Shown here one piece after another: positions 23,538 to 57,898 of a stretch of 64,000 nt of DNA. Both the position numbers and the translations under genes were made by a program. Positions within the stretch are counted from its first letter, which is position 1; each line of letters starts with the position of its first letter. This stretch comes from an uncultured Ruminococcus sp. (GTDB taxonomy: Bacteria; Bacillota; Clostridia; Oscillospirales; Ruminococcaceae): positions 1 to 64,000 of the forward strand of contig CANQWA010000002.1 in NCBI GenBank assembly GCA_947627445.1. Reading direction: 5' to 3'. The notes beneath the pieces were generated by a model, which was not told where the DNA came from, did not search any database, and saw only the letters and a program-made list of their open reading frames with translations.

Positions 23538-24704
23538 TTAAAAAATCACCTCAATGACCATCGTTACAAGGCACAGAATAAAGAGCACGGAAAGAGGACC
23601 CGGATTCCATATGACACGAAGCCGTTCCCGTGGGCTGAGATAATGCTTCTGGTTCAGCAGTGCCGGGTTGGTTCTCCGGGGACGAATGAACAGCAAACTG
23701 CCCAAAATGCCGATCGTCAGAATCGCAAGCATCAGCAGCATCTGGATGTTCATAGAAGCCGCTTTTGACCGGATCCAGAAGAATCCGAACATCAGCAGAT
23801 GGCAGAGCATCCGGTTGAGAATTGCCGGCAGAAGAGAACCGCTGCGGAGAACCGCAATACCTGCTACTACGGCAAAGGTCAGATCCATGGGCAATGTGAT
23901 AAAGCTGTGGTTCAGGCAGGCATTCAGCAGCGCTGTCATCAGAATGGCGTACCAGTCTCCGAATTGGCGCAGTACGTGAAGCACTTCACCGTGGATCAGA
24001 AGTTCTGACATGATGCTGACAACCACCAGTTTGTAGATCAGATAGATCATCCCATACGGTGCCTGCATATAGGAAACAGCATAATAGGCGGTTCCGATGG
24101 TGTTGTGTGCTAAGGGATTATTGGATGAAAACAGCATCCATATGTTGACGATGACAAACAATGCCAACGTCAGACAGGTGGAAACCGGAAGCTCATGGGG
24201 ATTGTCCGGCTTTAGATGATATGCCACCCGCCGGGGCAGCCGGAACATTTTCCGGAAGATCAGCACGGGAATCAGATATTTCAGAAACGTCTGGAACATC
24301 AGGATGATCAGGACAGGCAATTCCGGACCGTACATGGCATTGTTGCTGTAGCTGTAGTCGATCTCCATGCCCAGCAGATTTGCTCCGGCAACCAGCAGAT
24401 AGCCGGACAGACTTTCCAGCATCAGATACAGCAGGATTGCGATACCAATCACCATATGGACACGCTGCATGGTGCGGCGTTCTTCTACAGCAGGATCAGG
24501 GGATTGATAGCCCACACCCTCGATATAGATATTTTCATTTGCGGCTCTCCGGCAGCGGAAAGCATAGTTGTTGTCTTCCCTGTTTCTCCACATGCGGAAT
24601 GCACGGCTGTATGCCTTGGAGACGGTGCTGTAGTCAGAATCGGCAACCACATCAATATCGTATCTTTTGCCGGACTCTTGTTTGGATGGAAAAGCTTTTC
24701 GCAT
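23538..24704 (-). CDS. Polytopic membrane protein, CPBP/abortive-infection-like C-terminal region (degenerate)
   Basis: Eight or so hydrophobic segments; MSELLIHGEVLHVLRQFG...ALLNACLNHSF resembles a CPBP core without a clean EExxxR. Confidence 0.5.
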   Translation of the reverse strand: MRKAFPSKQESGKRYDIDVVADSDYSTVSKAYSRAFRMWRNREDNNYAFRCRRAANENIYIEGVGYQSPDPAVEERRTMQRVHMVIGIAILLYLMLESLSGYLLVAGANLLGMEIDYSYSNNAMYGPELPVLIILMFQTFLKYLIPVLIFRKMFRLPRRVAYHLKPDNPHELPVSTCLTLALFVIVNIWMLFSSNNPLAHNTIGTAYYAVSYMQAPYGMIYLIYKLVVVSIMSELLIHGEVLHVLRQFGDWYAILMTALLNACLNHSFITLPMDLTFAVVAGIAVLRSGSLLPAILNRMLCHLLMFGFFWIRSKAASMNIQMLLMLAILTIGILGSLLFIRPRRTNPALLNQKHYLSPRERLRVIWNPGPLSVLFILCLVTMVIEVIF

Positions 24705-25015
24705 GAATGTTATGACACCTCGATATGTCTATGATACCGTAAATGGATGGTATCATAAATGCTTTGCAACCATTATACCATAGTAAAAAGCGCTTTCGGT
24801 TTTTAAAGTGGAAAAATAGTAACAGCATATTGTGAATGATTCCAAACAGAATTGTGTATGGTAAAAAACGCACAAATTTTTTCGCCAATTTTTTTGCGGC
24901 TTTTGAGAAAAAATAGTTGCAGTTTTTCACAGGGTGTGGTATAATAGAAACAAATATATGTGGACACCGGAAATGGATGCCTGTACAGGAACAATACCGA
25001 AGGAGGAATGTAAGT

Positions 25016-27238
25016 ATGAAGACGATAACACACAAGACAATGGCGTTCTTCGCTGTGCTTTTGGCGATGTTGTTGTTCTGGGCGGGTATTGGCAGCGTGA
25101 TGCCCGCTGTAGATCTGACGGCTGCGGCGTGGACTTCTGATATGACAGACGAAGAGATGCAGCAATTTGCCGATGATGTGATTGCATTGGTGAATCAGGA
25201 GCGTGCGGCGGAGGGAATAGATCCTGTTTACGCATTGCCGATTCTGAACGAGGCGGCTGCAGTTCGGGCAAAGGAGTGTACAGAGCTGTTTGAACATGAA
25301 CGGCCGGACGGCACAAGCTGCGCCACCGTTCTGGATGAATTCGGCGTCACCTGGCATGCCTGGGGCGAAAATATTGCCTATGGCTATAGTTCGCCGAAAA
25401 ATTTCATGGAAGGCTGGATGAATTCGGAAGGGCACCGGAAAAACATCCTGAACAGCAGCTATACCCATATGGGCGTGGGTGTCACTTGTTTCAACGGGAT
25501 CATTTACTGTACCCAGAGCTTTGTGGGAAGACCGAATATCACAGATGGCGAGTATATGCCGGAACTGCGTGTGACTACTACCACAACAACCATTACGACA
25601 ACAACGACATCTGCAACAACTACCGCCGCCATCACCGTATTGCCGGTACCTACATATGAATACACCATCTATGAAGAGGAAGAAAATGCCATCACGGTTC
25701 AAAGCGGATATATGAAGTACTATCGCTTTATTCCGGATTATTCCGGCACCTATTATTTTTACACAACAGGTTCTATTGATACAATAGGCGAGCTGTATGA
25801 CACATATGGTTCGCATCTGGAAAGTGACGATGACAGCGGAGAAGATTTCAATTTTGAACTGTCGTATGATCTGTACGAAGGCGCTACGTATTATATCGGC
25901 GTTGAGGGTCTGTATGAATCCGGAAGTACTTCGCTGTATGTTTCGAGAACAGGAGGCGCAACTGTCATGACGACGGATGAGACGGAGACTGCGGCAACTA
26001 CCACCACTACAGCTGTCACGGATGTTGTGCAAGAAGCCTGGCTGCAGGGTGAAGAGGTAGAGCTTTCTGCTTCAGAACTGGTGGGAAACGGCTATATTGT
26101 CAACATTCCTTTGACATTTCAAATCAACACCGGCATCAAGGGATTGGAATTCGGCTTGTCATGGGACAGCGAGATGATGACCATTATGAATGTTACCTGC
26201 GATGCAGAAAACATGATGATATCCTCCAGAGTAAATACCGATGAAGATTTTCTGTGGGTCTCTTTTGCCTGCCTGGATGATGCCCATTACGGTGACGAGC
26301 TGTGCACCCTGCAATTCTGGGTATCTGATGCGGTATTGGATCAAGAGGGTGCCGGACTGCTGAGCGTGAACATGGAAACCGACAGTCCTTTCGGCTTGAC
26401 GGCAAATGCCTATGGACCGGACGGATCATCCATTGACTTGACGATGTCCTCTCCTGTCTGGGTAGTGATCTCGCCGGATGACCCGGATGTGACTACGACA
26501 ACGACACAGGTGACAGAAGAACCAAATAGCACGAGTACGGTTACAACCCTGGAAGAGTACGATGTGGTTGCACAGGTCGACTCAGTAGAAATTTCCCTGG
26601 AAGAATTGCAGGCAAATGACTATCAGATATCCATTCCGATGCGCTATATCCAAAACAGCGGTTTTACTGCCATGAGCTTCGGCATCAAAACAGACAGTTC
26701 ACTGCTGCAACTGGAAAGTTGCCAATCGGACACATCGATGCTGTTGTGTGCATCTACCATCTCCCATGAGAAGGATATGGTATGGCTCAGCCTCCTCAGC
26801 CAGCAGGGGGATCTATGGACGGGTTATGAAGACTATACCGGCGAGGAATTTTGCACCCTGACCTTTACAATCAGTCCGGATGTACAGCCAGGAGATGTGA
26901 TGGAGATCTATGGTGTGTATACGGATGCTGTAGGAGATCCCTATATGGCGAATAATGCAGAAGATGAAGATCTGGCGCTTTTAGTCAACACCGGACAGAT
27001 TGTCATCTCTGGCGAACCGACAGCAAAGATCCATCGGGGCGATTTGAACGGAGACGGCGTGGTCAGTCTGGCAGATGTCGTGCTGCTGAGTAAGACCATC
27101 ATTGGTGTAACGCAATATACCATAGAGACAGACAGCGCACTGCTCAAGTCGGCTGATATCAATGGCGACGGTGTGATCGGCAGCGATGATGCAGCGCTGC
27201 TGCTGCAATTCCTAAATAAGATTGTGGACGAAATATAA
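25016..27238 (+). CDS. Secreted CAP/SCP domain protein with PPC-like, two cohesin-like modules and a C-terminal dockerin
   Basis: CAP: NQERAAEGIDPVYALPILNEAAAVRAKE...WHAWGENIAYGYSSPKNFMEGWMNSEGHRKNILNSSYTHMGVG; Thr-rich linkers; dockerin: GDLNGDGVVSLADVVLLSKTI...ADINGDGVIGSDDAALLLQFL. Confidence 0.85.
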   Translation: MKTITHKTMAFFAVLLAMLLFWAGIGSVMPAVDLTAAAWTSDMTDEEMQQFADDVIALVNQERAAEGIDPVYALPILNEAAAVRAKECTELFEHERPDGTSCATVLDEFGVTWHAWGENIAYGYSSPKNFMEGWMNSEGHRKNILNSSYTHMGVGVTCFNGIIYCTQSFVGRPNITDGEYMPELRVTTTTTTITTTTTSATTTAAITVLPVPTYEYTIYEEEENAITVQSGYMKYYRFIPDYSGTYYFYTTGSIDTIGELYDTYGSHLESDDDSGEDFNFELSYDLYEGATYYIGVEGLYESGSTSLYVSRTGGATVMTTDETETAATTTTTAVTDVVQEAWLQGEEVELSASELVGNGYIVNIPLTFQINTGIKGLEFGLSWDSEMMTIMNVTCDAENMMISSRVNTDEDFLWVSFACLDDAHYGDELCTLQFWVSDAVLDQEGAGLLSVNMETDSPFGLTANAYGPDGSSIDLTMSSPVWVVISPDDPDVTTTTTQVTEEPNSTSTVTTLEEYDVVAQVDSVEISLEELQANDYQISIPMRYIQNSGFTAMSFGIKTDSSLLQLESCQSDTSMLLCASTISHEKDMVWLSLLSQQGDLWTGYEDYTGEEFCTLTFTISPDVQPGDVMEIYGVYTDAVGDPYMANNAEDEDLALLVNTGQIVISGEPTAKIHRGDLNGDGVVSLADVVLLSKTIIGVTQYTIETDSALLKSADINGDGVIGSDDAALLLQFLNKIVDEI

Positions 27239-27246
27239 AAGCTTTT

Positions 27247-27290
27247 CCCGAACCTGTCCGTATAGGCACATACGGACAGGTTCTTGTTTT
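27247..27290 (+). terminator. Rho-independent terminator
   Basis: GAACCTGTCCGTAT aggcac ATACGGACAGGTTC then T-rich. Confidence 0.85.
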
Positions 27291-27357: not shown

Positions 27358-27386
27358 TTGACAAAGCCGCTGCTGTATGGTATAAT
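27358..27386 (+). promoter_or_regulatory. SigA-type promoter for the DUF4234 gene
   Basis: TTGACA - 17 nt - TATAAT. Confidence 0.8.
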
Positions 27387-27475: not shown

Positions 27476-27991
27476 ATGATCTGTCCAAACTGTGGCTCTA
27501 ATTTTGAAGGCGCATTTTGCCCCAACTGCGGTACAGCAGCTCAGCAGCCCAATGCGGCATCCAATATGGGGGCAACACCTCCGGTACAGCCCAATATGCA
27601 GCAGTATACCGGCGCACCAGTTCCGCCGCCTACGGGTTCTGCTTATGGCGTTCAGGAGCGTAACATTGCGCTTTGCATCATTTTTTCTCTGATCACTTGC
27701 GGTATCTACGGGCTGTATTGGCTGTACTGCCTGACAGAGGATGTCAAAAAGCTGTCCAATAATCCCAATGGCACTTCCGGCGGTATTACCATTCTATTGG
27801 GCATTGTGACATGTGGTATCTATCTCTGGTACTGGATGTATACACAGGGTGATGCCATCGACAAGGTCAAACAGTCCCGGGGAATTGCTTCCGGCAATAC
27901 GGGTATTCTGTATCTAATTCTGTCTATTGTTGGTCTGGGTATTGTTTCCTATGCCCTGATGCAGAACGAAATCAACCATCTAGCAAAGTAA
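27476..27991 (+). CDS. Zinc-ribbon plus DUF4234-like membrane protein
   Basis: MICPNCGSNFEGAFCPNCGTA; RNIALCIIFSLITCGIYGLYWLYCLTEDVKKLS. Confidence 0.85.
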   Translation: MICPNCGSNFEGAFCPNCGTAAQQPNAASNMGATPPVQPNMQQYTGAPVPPPTGSAYGVQERNIALCIIFSLITCGIYGLYWLYCLTEDVKKLSNNPNGTSGGITILLGIVTCGIYLWYWMYTQGDAIDKVKQSRGIASGNTGILYLILSIVGLGIVSYALMQNEINHLAK

Positions 27992-36985: not shown

Positions 36986-37861
36986 ATGAAAATACGTTTT
37001 TTATCACTGATTTGCGCTGCATCTGTACTGGGAACAACAACGCTGCTTCTGCCGATTTCCGGCTCTGCTGAAGAGGACGGCACTGTCACCACTGTCGTGC
37101 AGATGGAACGCAGTAAAGCACTGGCTTATGAGCCGGAAAACGAGATCACCGGTGAGATTGCCTTGATTGTGGATGAACACCCGATCCATGTCAATATCAC
37201 GATGTATTCTTCCGAAAAACCGGTGGTTTACTATGATGCAGACCTGACAGCTGAAGCAGGCAGCGATTTGACAAAATATGTCTTTCAGGTAGACTATTCC
37301 GAATATCCTGACCAATCCCAGCTGTCTCAATTCCAGAATCTCTACACCTCGGAATATTTTACCGGCACATATAGCTCCTGCTATTATATCACCATTTCTG
37401 CGCCGGACACCAAAGAGGCTGTATTTGAGGAATCTGTCCTGGTAGCCGATCCCCACAGTGACGCTTCCGTCACCGGAAAAACACGGTATACCTACACGAT
37501 TCTGTTTGACGAAAAACTGGAGATACCGGTTACCTCCGGCGATTCCTATGGAGACATTACAGATGGAAATGCGGATATTTTCAGAGATATCACCATGCTC
37601 TGGAAGCCCTATGCACTGGGCGATGTGGATGAAAGCGGTGTGATCGATATGCAGGACGCCTATCTGATTCTGCTGTACGGTTCGTATGCTTCCATGAACA
37701 TCGAACCGGACTTTGAGATCAACCTGGATGCCTCTGATACAGACGGTGACGGCAAGATCACCCAGACAGATGCCTTTCTGACGCTGGTCTATACATCCTA
37801 TGTGGCAATGGGCTCAGAACTTACCTTTGAGGAATTCTTAGCCTCTGATCTGCGCCCCTAA
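36986..37861 (+). CDS. Secreted dockerin-containing protein
   Basis: Signal peptide MKIRFLSLICAASVLGTTTLLLPISGSAEE; C-terminal GDVDESGVIDMQDAYLILLYGSY...DASDTDGDGKITQTDAFLTLVYTSY. Confidence 0.85.
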   Translation: MKIRFLSLICAASVLGTTTLLLPISGSAEEDGTVTTVVQMERSKALAYEPENEITGEIALIVDEHPIHVNITMYSSEKPVVYYDADLTAEAGSDLTKYVFQVDYSEYPDQSQLSQFQNLYTSEYFTGTYSSCYYITISAPDTKEAVFEESVLVADPHSDASVTGKTRYTYTILFDEKLEIPVTSGDSYGDITDGNADIFRDITMLWKPYALGDVDESGVIDMQDAYLILLYGSYASMNIEPDFEINLDASDTDGDGKITQTDAFLTLVYTSYVAMGSELTFEEFLASDLRP

Positions 37862-54981: not shown

Positions 54982-55255
54982 GGATGTTGTTCAAAATGAC
55001 AAAAGCTTTTTTCGAGTGAGATACGATTTTTAGAGGTTTTGTGCATAGTACACAAAGCGGATAGGCAATTTTCTATCTTTCGGTCGAAATGTTAACAAAT
55101 TATACATTTACTTTTTTGGGAGCGAATGGTATAATAAACATAGCCGAAAGATGAATGTTTCATTTTGAAAGCTGAAACAGAACAGTATCTGCCGTCTGTT
55201 CTGTGACATGAGAATTTCAAGAATGAAACCGAACTATGAAAAAAGGAGCGATACT

Positions 55256-57898
55256 ATGATGAAATCGATTCGTAAAAGAACAAGTGCGCTGATTGTTAGT
55301 GCGGTCATGGCTGCTTCTACACTGTCTGTATTGACAGCTGAGAGTCTGCCGGTTTCCGCATTTACAGCAACCTCCGCAAGTTCTATTAACAAGACAATGC
55401 CGACAGCGGTCAATTCTGATGATCCTGATACACCGGCAAATCAGACAGAATGCACCTTCCAGTGTGCAGCAAAGACAGATGCCTATACTGCATGGACAGA
55501 TACCTCTGGCAAGGGTCCGGCTACGTTCCTGGGCAGTGAGAGTGTAAAGACATTGCAGTTCAACTTCAAAGCAGACGCAATTGTCACACAGTTTTCTTAC
55601 TATTTCGGATGCGCCGCTGACAAATCCCATGCTTACTGGTGGGATTATAAAGATCCTAAAACCGATGAGGCTTATGAGTGCCATCCCTATGCAACGGAGT
55701 TCTCTGTCGTAATCGAGATTCCTTCTTATGCGAATCTTGCGGATAAAGACGGTAAATTCCAGATTCAGAACTGCTATACAGCAACGATCGATGAGGCTAC
55801 CAAGAAGACAACCAGCCGTGCAGATATCACGCTGGTTTCTATTGAAGCAAACGGTACAACAGACACCAGTGAGGGCGAAAGACCGGATTGGATTCCGACT
55901 CCTCCCGATCCCAATCTGCCCAAGGCTGCAGAAAATACCGGCGGTCTGTATTATTCCAGCGCCAACTATGACAATGGCAGCTATGACTTCCAGGATAATG
56001 GCGACGGTACTGCTACGATAACAGCACTGCACTCTTTGAAAATGGAAGAAGATGCTCTGGGCTATGTCCTGACTCCCGGCGACTCCTGCAGCGAAGAGTA
56101 CTATGCAGAAAATGCAGAGGAGTACGGTCTGTCGAATAATCCTTCTGAGGCAGATATCCGTAATGCTGACCTCCCGCTGAACAGTCATAAGTTCACATAT
56201 GATGACTTCAACTTCAAGCCGGGTGTCAATGTTTCTCAGAATGTAAAGGTAAAATCCCTGTCTGTGACACTTCAGGCTGAGGACAACAGCACAAATATCA
56301 CTCGTCTCATGTACGGCGGCGGTCTGAATGTAGAGGCAAAGAGCCCGGCTGATACAGAGTATGCCAAGGCACAGGCTGGCGTAAAGGATGATCCGAATGC
56401 TGGTTATTGGTATAATGATATCGGTGCGGATATGCTGGCTGAATGTGAAGAAGCCGGTGTGGATTGGGGCATCGAAGTTGGCGGCGGTACAGACCTGGCA
56501 AAGCAGGATATGGGCAGCTATATCACGGTAACATGGGATGTTCCGGCAGATGTTGTAGATTATGTTACCACAAAGACAAAGGATCAGATCTCCTTCCAGC
56601 TGTGGTATGTAGAAGCAAACAGCGAGGGCGGCGACAGCGAAGCTCTGGCAAGCGGTCTGAAGATCGTTTCCGCAGCGCTGACTTATGAAGAAACCATCAC
56701 ATTCCCGTACAGTGCGCAGGCTTCTGTGAAGAATGCGGGCTCTGAAAGTGTTGGTAAACCTGTAGAAGTGAATTATTCTGATTTCGGCATGGAGTATGAA
56801 AAGACAGCGGACGTATATGCAGTTCAGTTCGATGTAACCCTGCCCACTGATGCAAATCAGGCTGTTGTTGGCGCAGGCACAAGCGTTCTGGAAAAACTGG
56901 GTCTGGACTACTGGTATCAGAGTGACGACTATTTCAAGAATGATCTGGGCAACTCTACCAGTCAGGCAATGTTCTACTGGGAAAAGACTACCGCAGGCAG
57001 CCGTCCGGATGCAAGCGATACAAAGACACCTAATGCAGCTTACAAAGATGCCGTTGGTACAAAGACTTACACCTATATGTGGATCATGCCGCCGAAGGTA
57101 GCGGAAGGCTGCGTATCCAGCGAAGATACTGGTGCCGTTAAGCCGGCAATCAACAATGTAAGCACAGAAGCAGAGGGCGACCATGTTTCCTTCGGTGTAT
57201 ACTACGCTGGTCTGGGTGAGAACACGGCTGACACCTTCTCCATTGATAACGTAACAGTATACTATGTCGCTGATGATACGAATAACAGCGCAAAGGCATA
57301 TATGTTTGAGGACGAATTGATTGTACCGGATGAGATTGACGTACAGGTCGGCAAATCTGCTCCTCTGGAAGTAAACGTTCCGGGTTGTTCCTTCACTTCC
57401 AGCGATACCACGAAGGCAAGTGCTGGTCTGTCCGAAAATGGCAAGGATGCAGATGTTCGCGGTAAAAACATCACGGATCCGGATGATCCGGTTATTATTA
57501 CTGTAACCACTCCGGGCGGTCAGGTTGCCTATGTTAAGGTTAACGTTCTGGCAGAAGTAACGGAAGTGCCAGCGACAACAACAGAATCAAAAACTACTTC
57601 AGCCACCACAACTACCAAAACAACTACGACAGTCAGCAAGACCACAGATGAAGGTACAGGCACCGTGGATACAGACTATGCAAAACACGCTCTGTACGGT
57701 GATGTAAACCTGGATGGTAAGGTTGATCTGGCTGATGCAATTCTGCTGAATAAGGCTTGCGCAGACGTGGTTAAACTGAATGGTCAGGCACTGGAGAATT
57801 CCGACTGTGAGTATGACCACATGCTGACGGTAGATGACTCTTTGAAGCTGCTTCTGTTCCTGGTACAGAAAGTAAATTCTATCGGTCCTGAGGTGTAA
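55256..57898 (+). CDS. Secreted multi-module dockerin protein, no recognised catalytic domain
   Basis: Signal peptide; tandem beta-sandwich-like modules; BIG2-like segment; Thr-rich linker; GDVNLDGKVDLADAILLNKACADVV dockerin repeat. Confidence 0.85.
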   Translation: MMKSIRKRTSALIVSAVMAASTLSVLTAESLPVSAFTATSASSINKTMPTAVNSDDPDTPANQTECTFQCAAKTDAYTAWTDTSGKGPATFLGSESVKTLQFNFKADAIVTQFSYYFGCAADKSHAYWWDYKDPKTDEAYECHPYATEFSVVIEIPSYANLADKDGKFQIQNCYTATIDEATKKTTSRADITLVSIEANGTTDTSEGERPDWIPTPPDPNLPKAAENTGGLYYSSANYDNGSYDFQDNGDGTATITALHSLKMEEDALGYVLTPGDSCSEEYYAENAEEYGLSNNPSEADIRNADLPLNSHKFTYDDFNFKPGVNVSQNVKVKSLSVTLQAEDNSTNITRLMYGGGLNVEAKSPADTEYAKAQAGVKDDPNAGYWYNDIGADMLAECEEAGVDWGIEVGGGTDLAKQDMGSYITVTWDVPADVVDYVTTKTKDQISFQLWYVEANSEGGDSEALASGLKIVSAALTYEETITFPYSAQASVKNAGSESVGKPVEVNYSDFGMEYEKTADVYAVQFDVTLPTDANQAVVGAGTSVLEKLGLDYWYQSDDYFKNDLGNSTSQAMFYWEKTTAGSRPDASDTKTPNAAYKDAVGTKTYTYMWIMPPKVAEGCVSSEDTGAVKPAINNVSTEAEGDHVSFGVYYAGLGENTADTFSIDNVTVYYVADDTNNSAKAYMFEDELIVPDEIDVQVGKSAPLEVNVPGCSFTSSDTTKASAGLSENGKDADVRGKNITDPDDPVIITVTTPGGQVAYVKVNVLAEVTEVPATTTESKTTSATTTTKTTTTVSKTTDEGTGTVDTDYAKHALYGDVNLDGKVDLADAILLNKACADVVKLNGQALENSDCEYDHMLTVDDSLKLLLFLVQKVNSIGPEV

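What the first reader, a model, noticed from the sequence alone, without database searches (positions are those of the whole stretch)
25016..27238. CAP-domain protein carrying two cohesin-like modules and a dockerin
The 741-aa protein reads CAP/SCP, Thr linker, PPC-like beta domain, Thr linker, cohesin-like module (VELSASELVGNGYIVNIPLTFQINTGIKGLEFGLSWDSEMMTI), Thr linker, second cohesin-like module (VEISLEELQANDYQISIPMRYIQNSGFTAMSFGIKTDSSLLQL), dockerin. If these modules bind dockerins, this would be an adaptor scaffoldin fused to a CAP domain. CAP domains are not a known plant-fibre activity, so the role in a cellulosome is unclear.
Basis: partly seen in the sequence, partly recalled or inferred. 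Interest (0 to 1): 0.7.

Follow-up and report, generated by a model that had tools for sequence, protein, structure and literature searches.

The report
CAP-domain adaptor scaffoldin of a cellulosome
A secreted connector protein of a gut-type fibre-degrading bacterium has two real sockets (cohesins) and one plug (dockerin) for building a multi-enzyme complex, but its front end is a CAP domain, a module not known to act on plant fibre; relatives of the bacterium repeatedly couple CAP domains to this complex.

Summary
ORF 25016-27238 (+) encodes a 740-aa secreted protein: signal peptide, CAP/SCP domain, Thr linker, unassigned beta-rich module, Thr linker, cohesin, Thr linker, cohesin, dockerin. 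Pfam misses both cohesins. They match crystallised cohesins of a same-genus scaffoldin (E 2.6e-13 and 3.3e-9), and an AlphaFold2 model of the pair returns a cohesin dyad as its top PDB match (E 4e-14). The 'PPC-like' label was not confirmed.

The genome has about 80 dockerin-bearing ORFs (GH48, GH9, GH26, pectate lyases). Seven cohesins match this class: four in one primary scaffoldin, two here, one in a sortase-type anchor. CAP+cohesin+dockerin proteins occur in 4 of 16 congeneric genomes, exactly the four with the four-cohesin scaffoldin; two are syntenic with the target. In one relative, both cohesins of such a protein are already in the PDB (10ut, 10uv). CAP joined to dockerin is common in the genus (14 of 21 CAP proteins). 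The dockerin groups with enzyme dockerins. Most likely this is a two-socket adaptor scaffoldin that plugs into the primary scaffoldin and adds a CAP module. Dockerin binding and CAP function are untested. A new variant of a known kind.

The parts
25000..25006 (+). ribosome-binding site AAGGAGG; a TATAAT with TGTGG before it lies at 24940-24945 (inferred promoter -10)
   Evidence: sequence; the promoter scan did not list it
25016..25126 (+). signal peptide, residues 1-~37 (K-rich start, hydrophobic core, AxA-type end)
   Evidence: read from sequence; no signal-peptide predictor available
25184..25516 (+). CAP/SCP domain (residues 57-167), with H94, E118 (GENIA) and H140 (GHR) kept
   Evidence: Pfam PF00188 4.7e-18, YkwD-type TIGR02909 2.1e-28, below its curated cut-off; AF2 pLDDT 95-98 and Foldseek to 4ifa, 4h0a, 4d53; conservation in A5
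25574..25639 (+). Thr-rich linker 1 (187-208)
   Evidence: homologue in G006:C39, 44% identity, E 1.6e-16; no Pfam or PDB assignment
25991..26020 (+). Thr-rich linker 2 (326-335)
26036..26470 (+). cohesin 1
   Evidence: genus cohesin profile A1 E 4.0e-42 (A1 contains this sequence); phmmer to solved cohesin 10ux 3.3e-9; AF2/Foldseek
26489..26551 (+). Thr/Ser/Glu linker 3
26564..27010 (+). cohesin 2
   Evidence: genus cohesin profile A1 E 2.9e-49 (A1 contains this sequence); phmmer to solved cohesin 10ux 2.6e-13; AF2/Foldseek
27038..27217 (+). dockerin with two calcium-loop repeats (DLNGDGVVSLAD, DINGDGVIGSDD); no X-module in front of it
   Evidence: PF00404; groups with GH9/GH48/GH26 dockerins, not with scaffoldin dockerins
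27250..27283 (+). intrinsic terminator, 14-pair stem then T-rich tail

Best explanation
It is a two-cohesin adaptor scaffoldin of a Ruminococcus-type cellulosome that carries a CAP domain as its own fixed cargo. Proposed working: the protein is secreted. Its C-terminal dockerin, of the same group as those of GH48, GH9 and GH26 enzymes, plugs into a cohesin of the four-cohesin primary scaffoldin, which is itself held to the cell by the single-cohesin sortase-type anchor. Its two cohesins then take up two further dockerin proteins, so one slot becomes two and the branch also presents a CAP module on a flexible Thr-rich stalk. Shown here: the modules, the cohesin fold, the dockerin group, the conserved association with the primary scaffoldin, and recurrence in relatives. 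Inferred: every binding step, the order of assembly, and any CAP activity. My lead for the CAP part is a ligand-binding or cell-envelope/peptide role, not fibre hydrolysis.
For: Cohesin identity: phmmer to solved cohesins, AF2 model with a cohesin dyad (3l8q) as top PDB match and single cohesins at TM 0.72-0.78, and close relatives whose cohesins are letter for letter PDB entries 10ut, 10uv, 10uw, 10ux, 10uy. System context: 86 dockerin matches, about 80 dockerin-bearing ORFs, including GH48, three GH9, GH26, GH43 and pectate lyases; primary scaffoldin, anchor with a ...SPKTGD...KKRK tail, and ScaC-like protein in the same genome. Dockerin tree: a branch with 96/93 support puts all four CAP-scaffoldin dockerins with enzyme dockerins and away from all four primary-scaffoldin dockerins. 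Co-occurrence: CAP-scaffoldins in 4 of 16 genomes, exactly the four with the four-cohesin scaffoldin; Fisher p 0.00055 if genomes were independent. Synteny of the G000, G002 and G008 copies with DUF4234 genes downstream. Analogy: ScaJ (Coh-Coh-Doc) of R. flavefaciens FD-1, whose dockerin binds ScaA/ScaB cohesins (PMC5301203).
Against: No binding data for any cohesin or dockerin here. The target's cohesins do not nest in any of the four conserved cohesin positions of the primary scaffoldin, so their partners cannot be read from sequence. The dockerin tree rests on 60 columns, and few of its forks are well supported. Genomes in the genus are related and several are incomplete, so the co-occurrence p-value overstates independence. 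No CAP activity is known in any cellulosome that I could find.
Confidence: 0.72

Rival explanations
1. It is a cargo protein first: the CAP domain is the functional part, and the cohesins are there to recruit one or two specific partners to it (a CAP hub) rather than to multiply enzyme slots.
For: CAP-dockerin proteins without cohesins are common in the genus (14 of 21 CAP proteins carry a dockerin, four of them with cohesins too), so CAP is cargo in its own right. The number of cohesins varies (1 or 2) and so does the number of CAP domains (1 or 2) between orthologues, while the CAP-coh-doc core stays.
Against: Cohesins are kept in all four copies, and CAP-scaffoldins track the primary scaffoldin, as expected of an assembly part.
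Confidence: 0.2
2. The two modules have the cohesin fold but do not bind dockerins: they are spacers, or bind something else.
For: Cohesin 1 is on a long branch (1.8 changes per column). The first-described divergent cohesins of R. flavefaciens (ScaJ 1-2, ScaO) were treated as putative (PMC5301203; PMC4081043).
Against: Cohesin 2 keeps the motif pattern of the scaffoldin cohesins. The homologous pair in G003 was crystallised and deposited as cohesins. About 80 dockerin-bearing ORFs are present.
Confidence: 0.12
3. The dockerin plugs into the cell-wall anchor cohesin (as ScaB, CttA and group-4 dockerins do in R. flavefaciens), so the protein is a second, independent surface scaffoldin near the peptidoglycan, where a CAP domain would fit a cell-envelope role.
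For: Its dockerin scores as high against the primary scaffoldin's dockerin as against the best enzyme dockerins (113 versus 115). CAP domains sit on Gram-positive surfaces, e.g. C. difficile Cwp12 (PMC5842191) and Enterococcus PrgA (solved CAP domain).
Against: The dockerin tree puts it and its orthologues with enzyme dockerins, and there is no X-module before the dockerin.
Confidence: 0.15

Closest known systems
ScaJ of Ruminococcus flavefaciens FD-1 (Coh-Coh-Doc, ZP_06145497; PMC5301203)
   Same: two divergent cohesins plus a C-terminal dockerin that (there) binds the cohesins of the primary scaffoldins
   Different: listed without a CAP domain in that paper; no sequence comparison could be made here
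L074 ORF 2, 792-aa CAP-cohesin-cohesin-dockerin protein of G003 (same genus), whose cohesins are PDB 10ut and 10uv
   Same: same order of CAP, two cohesins, dockerin; lies about 4 kb downstream of the solved four-cohesin scaffoldin
   Different: CAP domain of a different subtype; different middle module; cohesins only distantly related to those of the target
Syntenic orthologues L070 (G002, CAP-CAP-x-Coh-Doc) and L071 (G008, CAP-x-x-Coh-Doc)
   Same: same gene neighbourhood, CAP, cohesin and dockerin
   Different: one cohesin instead of two; two CAP domains in L070; other beta modules
ScaA of Acetivibrio cellulolyticus and other scaffoldins with their own catalytic module (from general knowledge)
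   Same: a scaffoldin that carries a non-structural module of its own
   Different: there a glycoside hydrolase, here a CAP domain
RflaF_05439 of R. flavefaciens FD-1, NlpC/P60-like modules with X-dockerin (PMC3573020)
   Same: non-carbohydrate module built into a ruminococcal cellulosome
   Different: a cargo protein with no cohesins

Membership tests
Cohesin | cohesin jelly-roll fold | tested here: met
   AF2 pLDDT 78.8; Foldseek 3l8q 4e-14 over both modules, single cohesins at TM 0.72-0.78
Cohesin | sequence homology to verified cohesins | tested here: met
   10ux at 2.6e-13 and 3.3e-9
Cohesin | Pfam PF00963 profile | tested here: not met
   no hit; but the primary scaffoldin with solved homologues also misses it, and PMC11557425 reports that profiles miss ruminococcal cohesins, so this is a limit of the profile rather than a defining feature
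Cohesin | binds a dockerin | not testable with these tools
   needs arrays, ITC or complex prediction
Dockerin (Pfam Dockerin_1) | two calcium-binding loop-helix repeats | tested here: met
   PF00404 1.3e-9; both loops intact
Polyvalent adaptor scaffoldin | a dockerin and several cohesins in one chain | tested here: met
   definition in PMC11557425
Polyvalent adaptor scaffoldin | part of a dockerin/cohesin system in the genome | tested here: met
Polyvalent adaptor scaffoldin | links other dockerin proteins to another scaffoldin | not testable with these tools
   needs binding data; only the dockerin grouping was tested
CAP/SCP superfamily | CAP fold and signature residues | tested here: met
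   PF00188 4.7e-18; Foldseek to 4ifa, 4h0a, 4d53; H94, E118, H140 present
PPC domain (PF04151) | match to the PPC profile | tested here: not met
   no hit at this site; structure not resolved

The most novel reading that the evidence does not exclude
CAP domains are a regular functional class of ruminococcal cellulosomes, delivered both as dockerin cargo and as built-in parts of adaptor scaffoldins, giving the complex a non-carbohydrate activity (envelope or peptide processing, or small-ligand capture) that has gone undescribed.
Probability: 0.35. Interest if true: 0.65.

Novelty: new variant of a known kind. Interest (0 to 1): 0.5.

Why it matters
Cellulosomes are seen as fibre-degrading machines. 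A conserved scaffoldin that always carries a CAP domain, and a genus in which two thirds of CAP proteins bear dockerins, point to a second job for the complex. It also gives a concrete test bed: solved cohesins of a homologue exist (10ut, 10uv), so partner dockerins and CAP activity can be assayed directly. It also shows again that Pfam-type profiles miss ruminococcal scaffoldins: in this genome PF00963 misses both target cohesins and the whole primary scaffoldin.

Tried and rejected
(1) PPC assignment: Pfam scan, PF04151 search of the genome, phmmer to PDB and AF2 all failed to support it. (2) Naming the organism: the genome-contig scan found only one distant CAP protein, and the cohesin alignment was too divergent to seed a scan; left unnamed. 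(3) Chance or artefact: rejected, since the ORF has a ribosome-binding site, a terminator, syntenic orthologues and conserved domain order. (4) That the target cohesins copy one position of the primary scaffoldin: not supported by the tree, where positions S1-S4 each form their own clade and the target's do not enter any. (5) Literature on CAP domains in cellulosomes: searches with CAP, SCP and allergen V5 wording plus dockerin/cohesin returned no paper; only open-licence papers are held, so this is weak evidence of absence.

Full report
WHAT IS THERE. The ORF at 25016-27238 (+) translates to 740 residues, preceded by AAGGAGG and followed by a strong intrinsic terminator at 27250-27283. It stands alone between a CAAX-protease-like gene on the other strand (23538-24704) and a DUF4234 gene (27476-27991). 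The N-terminus reads as a signal peptide (from sequence). Pfam gives CAP at 57-167 (4.7e-18) and Dockerin_1 at 675-734 (1.3e-9) and nothing significant between them.

THE TWO MIDDLE MODULES ARE COHESINS. phmmer against PDB sequences hits chains deposited as cohesin domains: 517-663 to 10ux_A at 2.6e-13 and the first module to 10ux_A at 3.3e-9. An AlphaFold2 model of residues 336-672, built on 20 same-genus sequences, has mean pLDDT 78.8. Its best PDB match is the cohesin dyad of an adaptor scaffoldin (3l8q, 4e-14, with the relative placing of the two modules differing), followed by many single cohesins at TM 0.72-0.78. The miss by PF00963 is not evidence against: the primary scaffoldin whose congeneric homologue is solved is missed too, and a 2024 survey reports that profile searches overlook most ruminococcal cohesins while AlphaFold2 finds them (PMC11557425).

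THE SOLVED RELATIVES. In genome G003 of the same genus, a 907-aa four-cohesin protein contains the native parts of 10uw, 10ux and 10uy letter for letter. About 4 kb downstream, a 792-aa CAP-cohesin-cohesin-dockerin protein contains those of 10ut and 10uv letter for letter. So the cohesins of a CAP-scaffoldin have already been solved and deposited as cohesins. I found no paper on them in the held library, and the PDB listing does not name the organism.

THE SYSTEM AROUND IT. The window's genome has 86 dockerin matches. About 80 ORFs carry a dockerin, among them GH48, three GH9, GH26, GH43, pectate lyases and LRR proteins. A cohesin profile from the genus finds seven cohesins: four in an 893-aa scaffoldin (G000:C10), two in the target, one in a 243-aa protein with a sortase-type tail ...SPKTGDALP...KKRK. 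A type-I ScaC-like Coh-Doc protein and further PF00963 matches at C33 are also present. The target therefore holds two of the seven cohesins of this class.

RELATIVES OF THE TARGET. CAP, cohesin and dockerin occur in one frame in 4 of 16 genomes of the genus (G000, G002, G003, G008), exactly the four with the four-cohesin scaffoldin. If genomes were independent this would have p = 0.00055; they are not, and some are incomplete. The G002 and G008 copies are syntenic with the target (DUF4234 genes and others downstream), yet have one cohesin, one or two CAP domains, and other middle modules, so the gene is conserved while its modules shuffle. In a sample of 249 genomes of the family, strong matches to this cohesin class are nearly confined to this genus and one other. 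CAP domains with dockerins but no cohesin are widespread: counting, 14 of 21 CAP proteins in the genus carry a dockerin (four of them also cohesins; four were not fetched and are counted as without), in 9 of 16 genomes; some also occur in other genera of the family (L138, L139, L059).

WHERE IT WOULD PLUG IN. In a dockerin tree (60 columns, weak inside), a branch with 96/93 support places all four CAP-scaffoldin dockerins with the GH48/GH9/GH26 dockerins and away from the four primary-scaffoldin dockerins. The primary scaffoldins have a further module between their last cohesin and the dockerin, as X-dockerin proteins do (Big-like by eye); the target's dockerin follows cohesin 2 directly. In R. 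flavefaciens FD-1 the comparable ScaJ (Coh-Coh-Doc) carries a group-1d dockerin, a group that binds ScaA/ScaB cohesins (PMC5301203). Hence the proposal: a cargo-type plug into the primary scaffoldin and two new sockets. What those sockets accept is open: scaffoldin positions S1 to S4 each form their own clade across species and the target's cohesins join none.

THE CAP PART. The CAP domain is confidently modelled (pLDDT 95-98), nearest to bacterial SCP structures 4ifa, 4h0a and Borrelia BB0689. H94, E118 and H140 of the usual CAP cavity are kept; that these line the cavity is from general knowledge of the family. No activity can be assigned. Precedents on Gram-positive surfaces are C. difficile Cwp12 (PMC5842191) and Enterococcus PrgA (structure only). 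I regard an envelope, peptide or ligand-binding role as likelier than fibre hydrolysis; this is inference.

VERDICT. It is a new variant (CAP-bearing) of a known kind (polyvalent adaptor scaffoldin). The more interesting, unproven reading is that CAP is a regular non-carbohydrate function of these cellulosomes.

Noticed in passing
L074:6890-9265 (G003:C10): A 792-aa CAP-Coh-Coh-Doc protein whose cohesins are PDB 10ut and 10uv lies about 4 kb downstream of the four-cohesin scaffoldin (10uw, 10ux, 10uy); its CAP domain is of a divergent subtype shared with L134 and L135.
   Followed up: yes
L073:2-2587 (G011:C52): An 862-aa protein with a wall-peptidase-like (CHAP/NlpC-like by eye) N-terminus, List_Bact repeat, cohesin and dockerin: another scaffoldin joined to a non-carbohydrate module. 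The N-terminal assignment is not supported by a Pfam hit.
   Followed up: partly
window 36986-37861 (+): Second dockerin protein in the window (291 aa) with no other Pfam domain.
   Followed up: partly
window 55169-57895 (+): 909-aa dockerin protein with three DUF5620 modules.
   Followed up: partly
L136 (G009:C26): CAP-CAP-dockerin protein whose second CAP looks degenerate: the GENIA and GHR signatures are lost.
   Followed up: no
L147 (G014:C99): 1474-aa protein with two cohesins and a dockerin, a candidate large scaffoldin in a genome without the four-cohesin scaffoldin.
   Followed up: no
G000:C33:9272-9835 (L002, L003): Two adjacent weak PF00963 cohesin matches, one with two stops inside: a possible decayed or frameshifted cohesin protein.
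   Followed up: no
window 27358-27386 (+): Perfect 12/12 sigma-70-type promoter (TTGACA-17-TATAAT, with TG) between the target gene and the DUF4234 gene.
   Followed up: no
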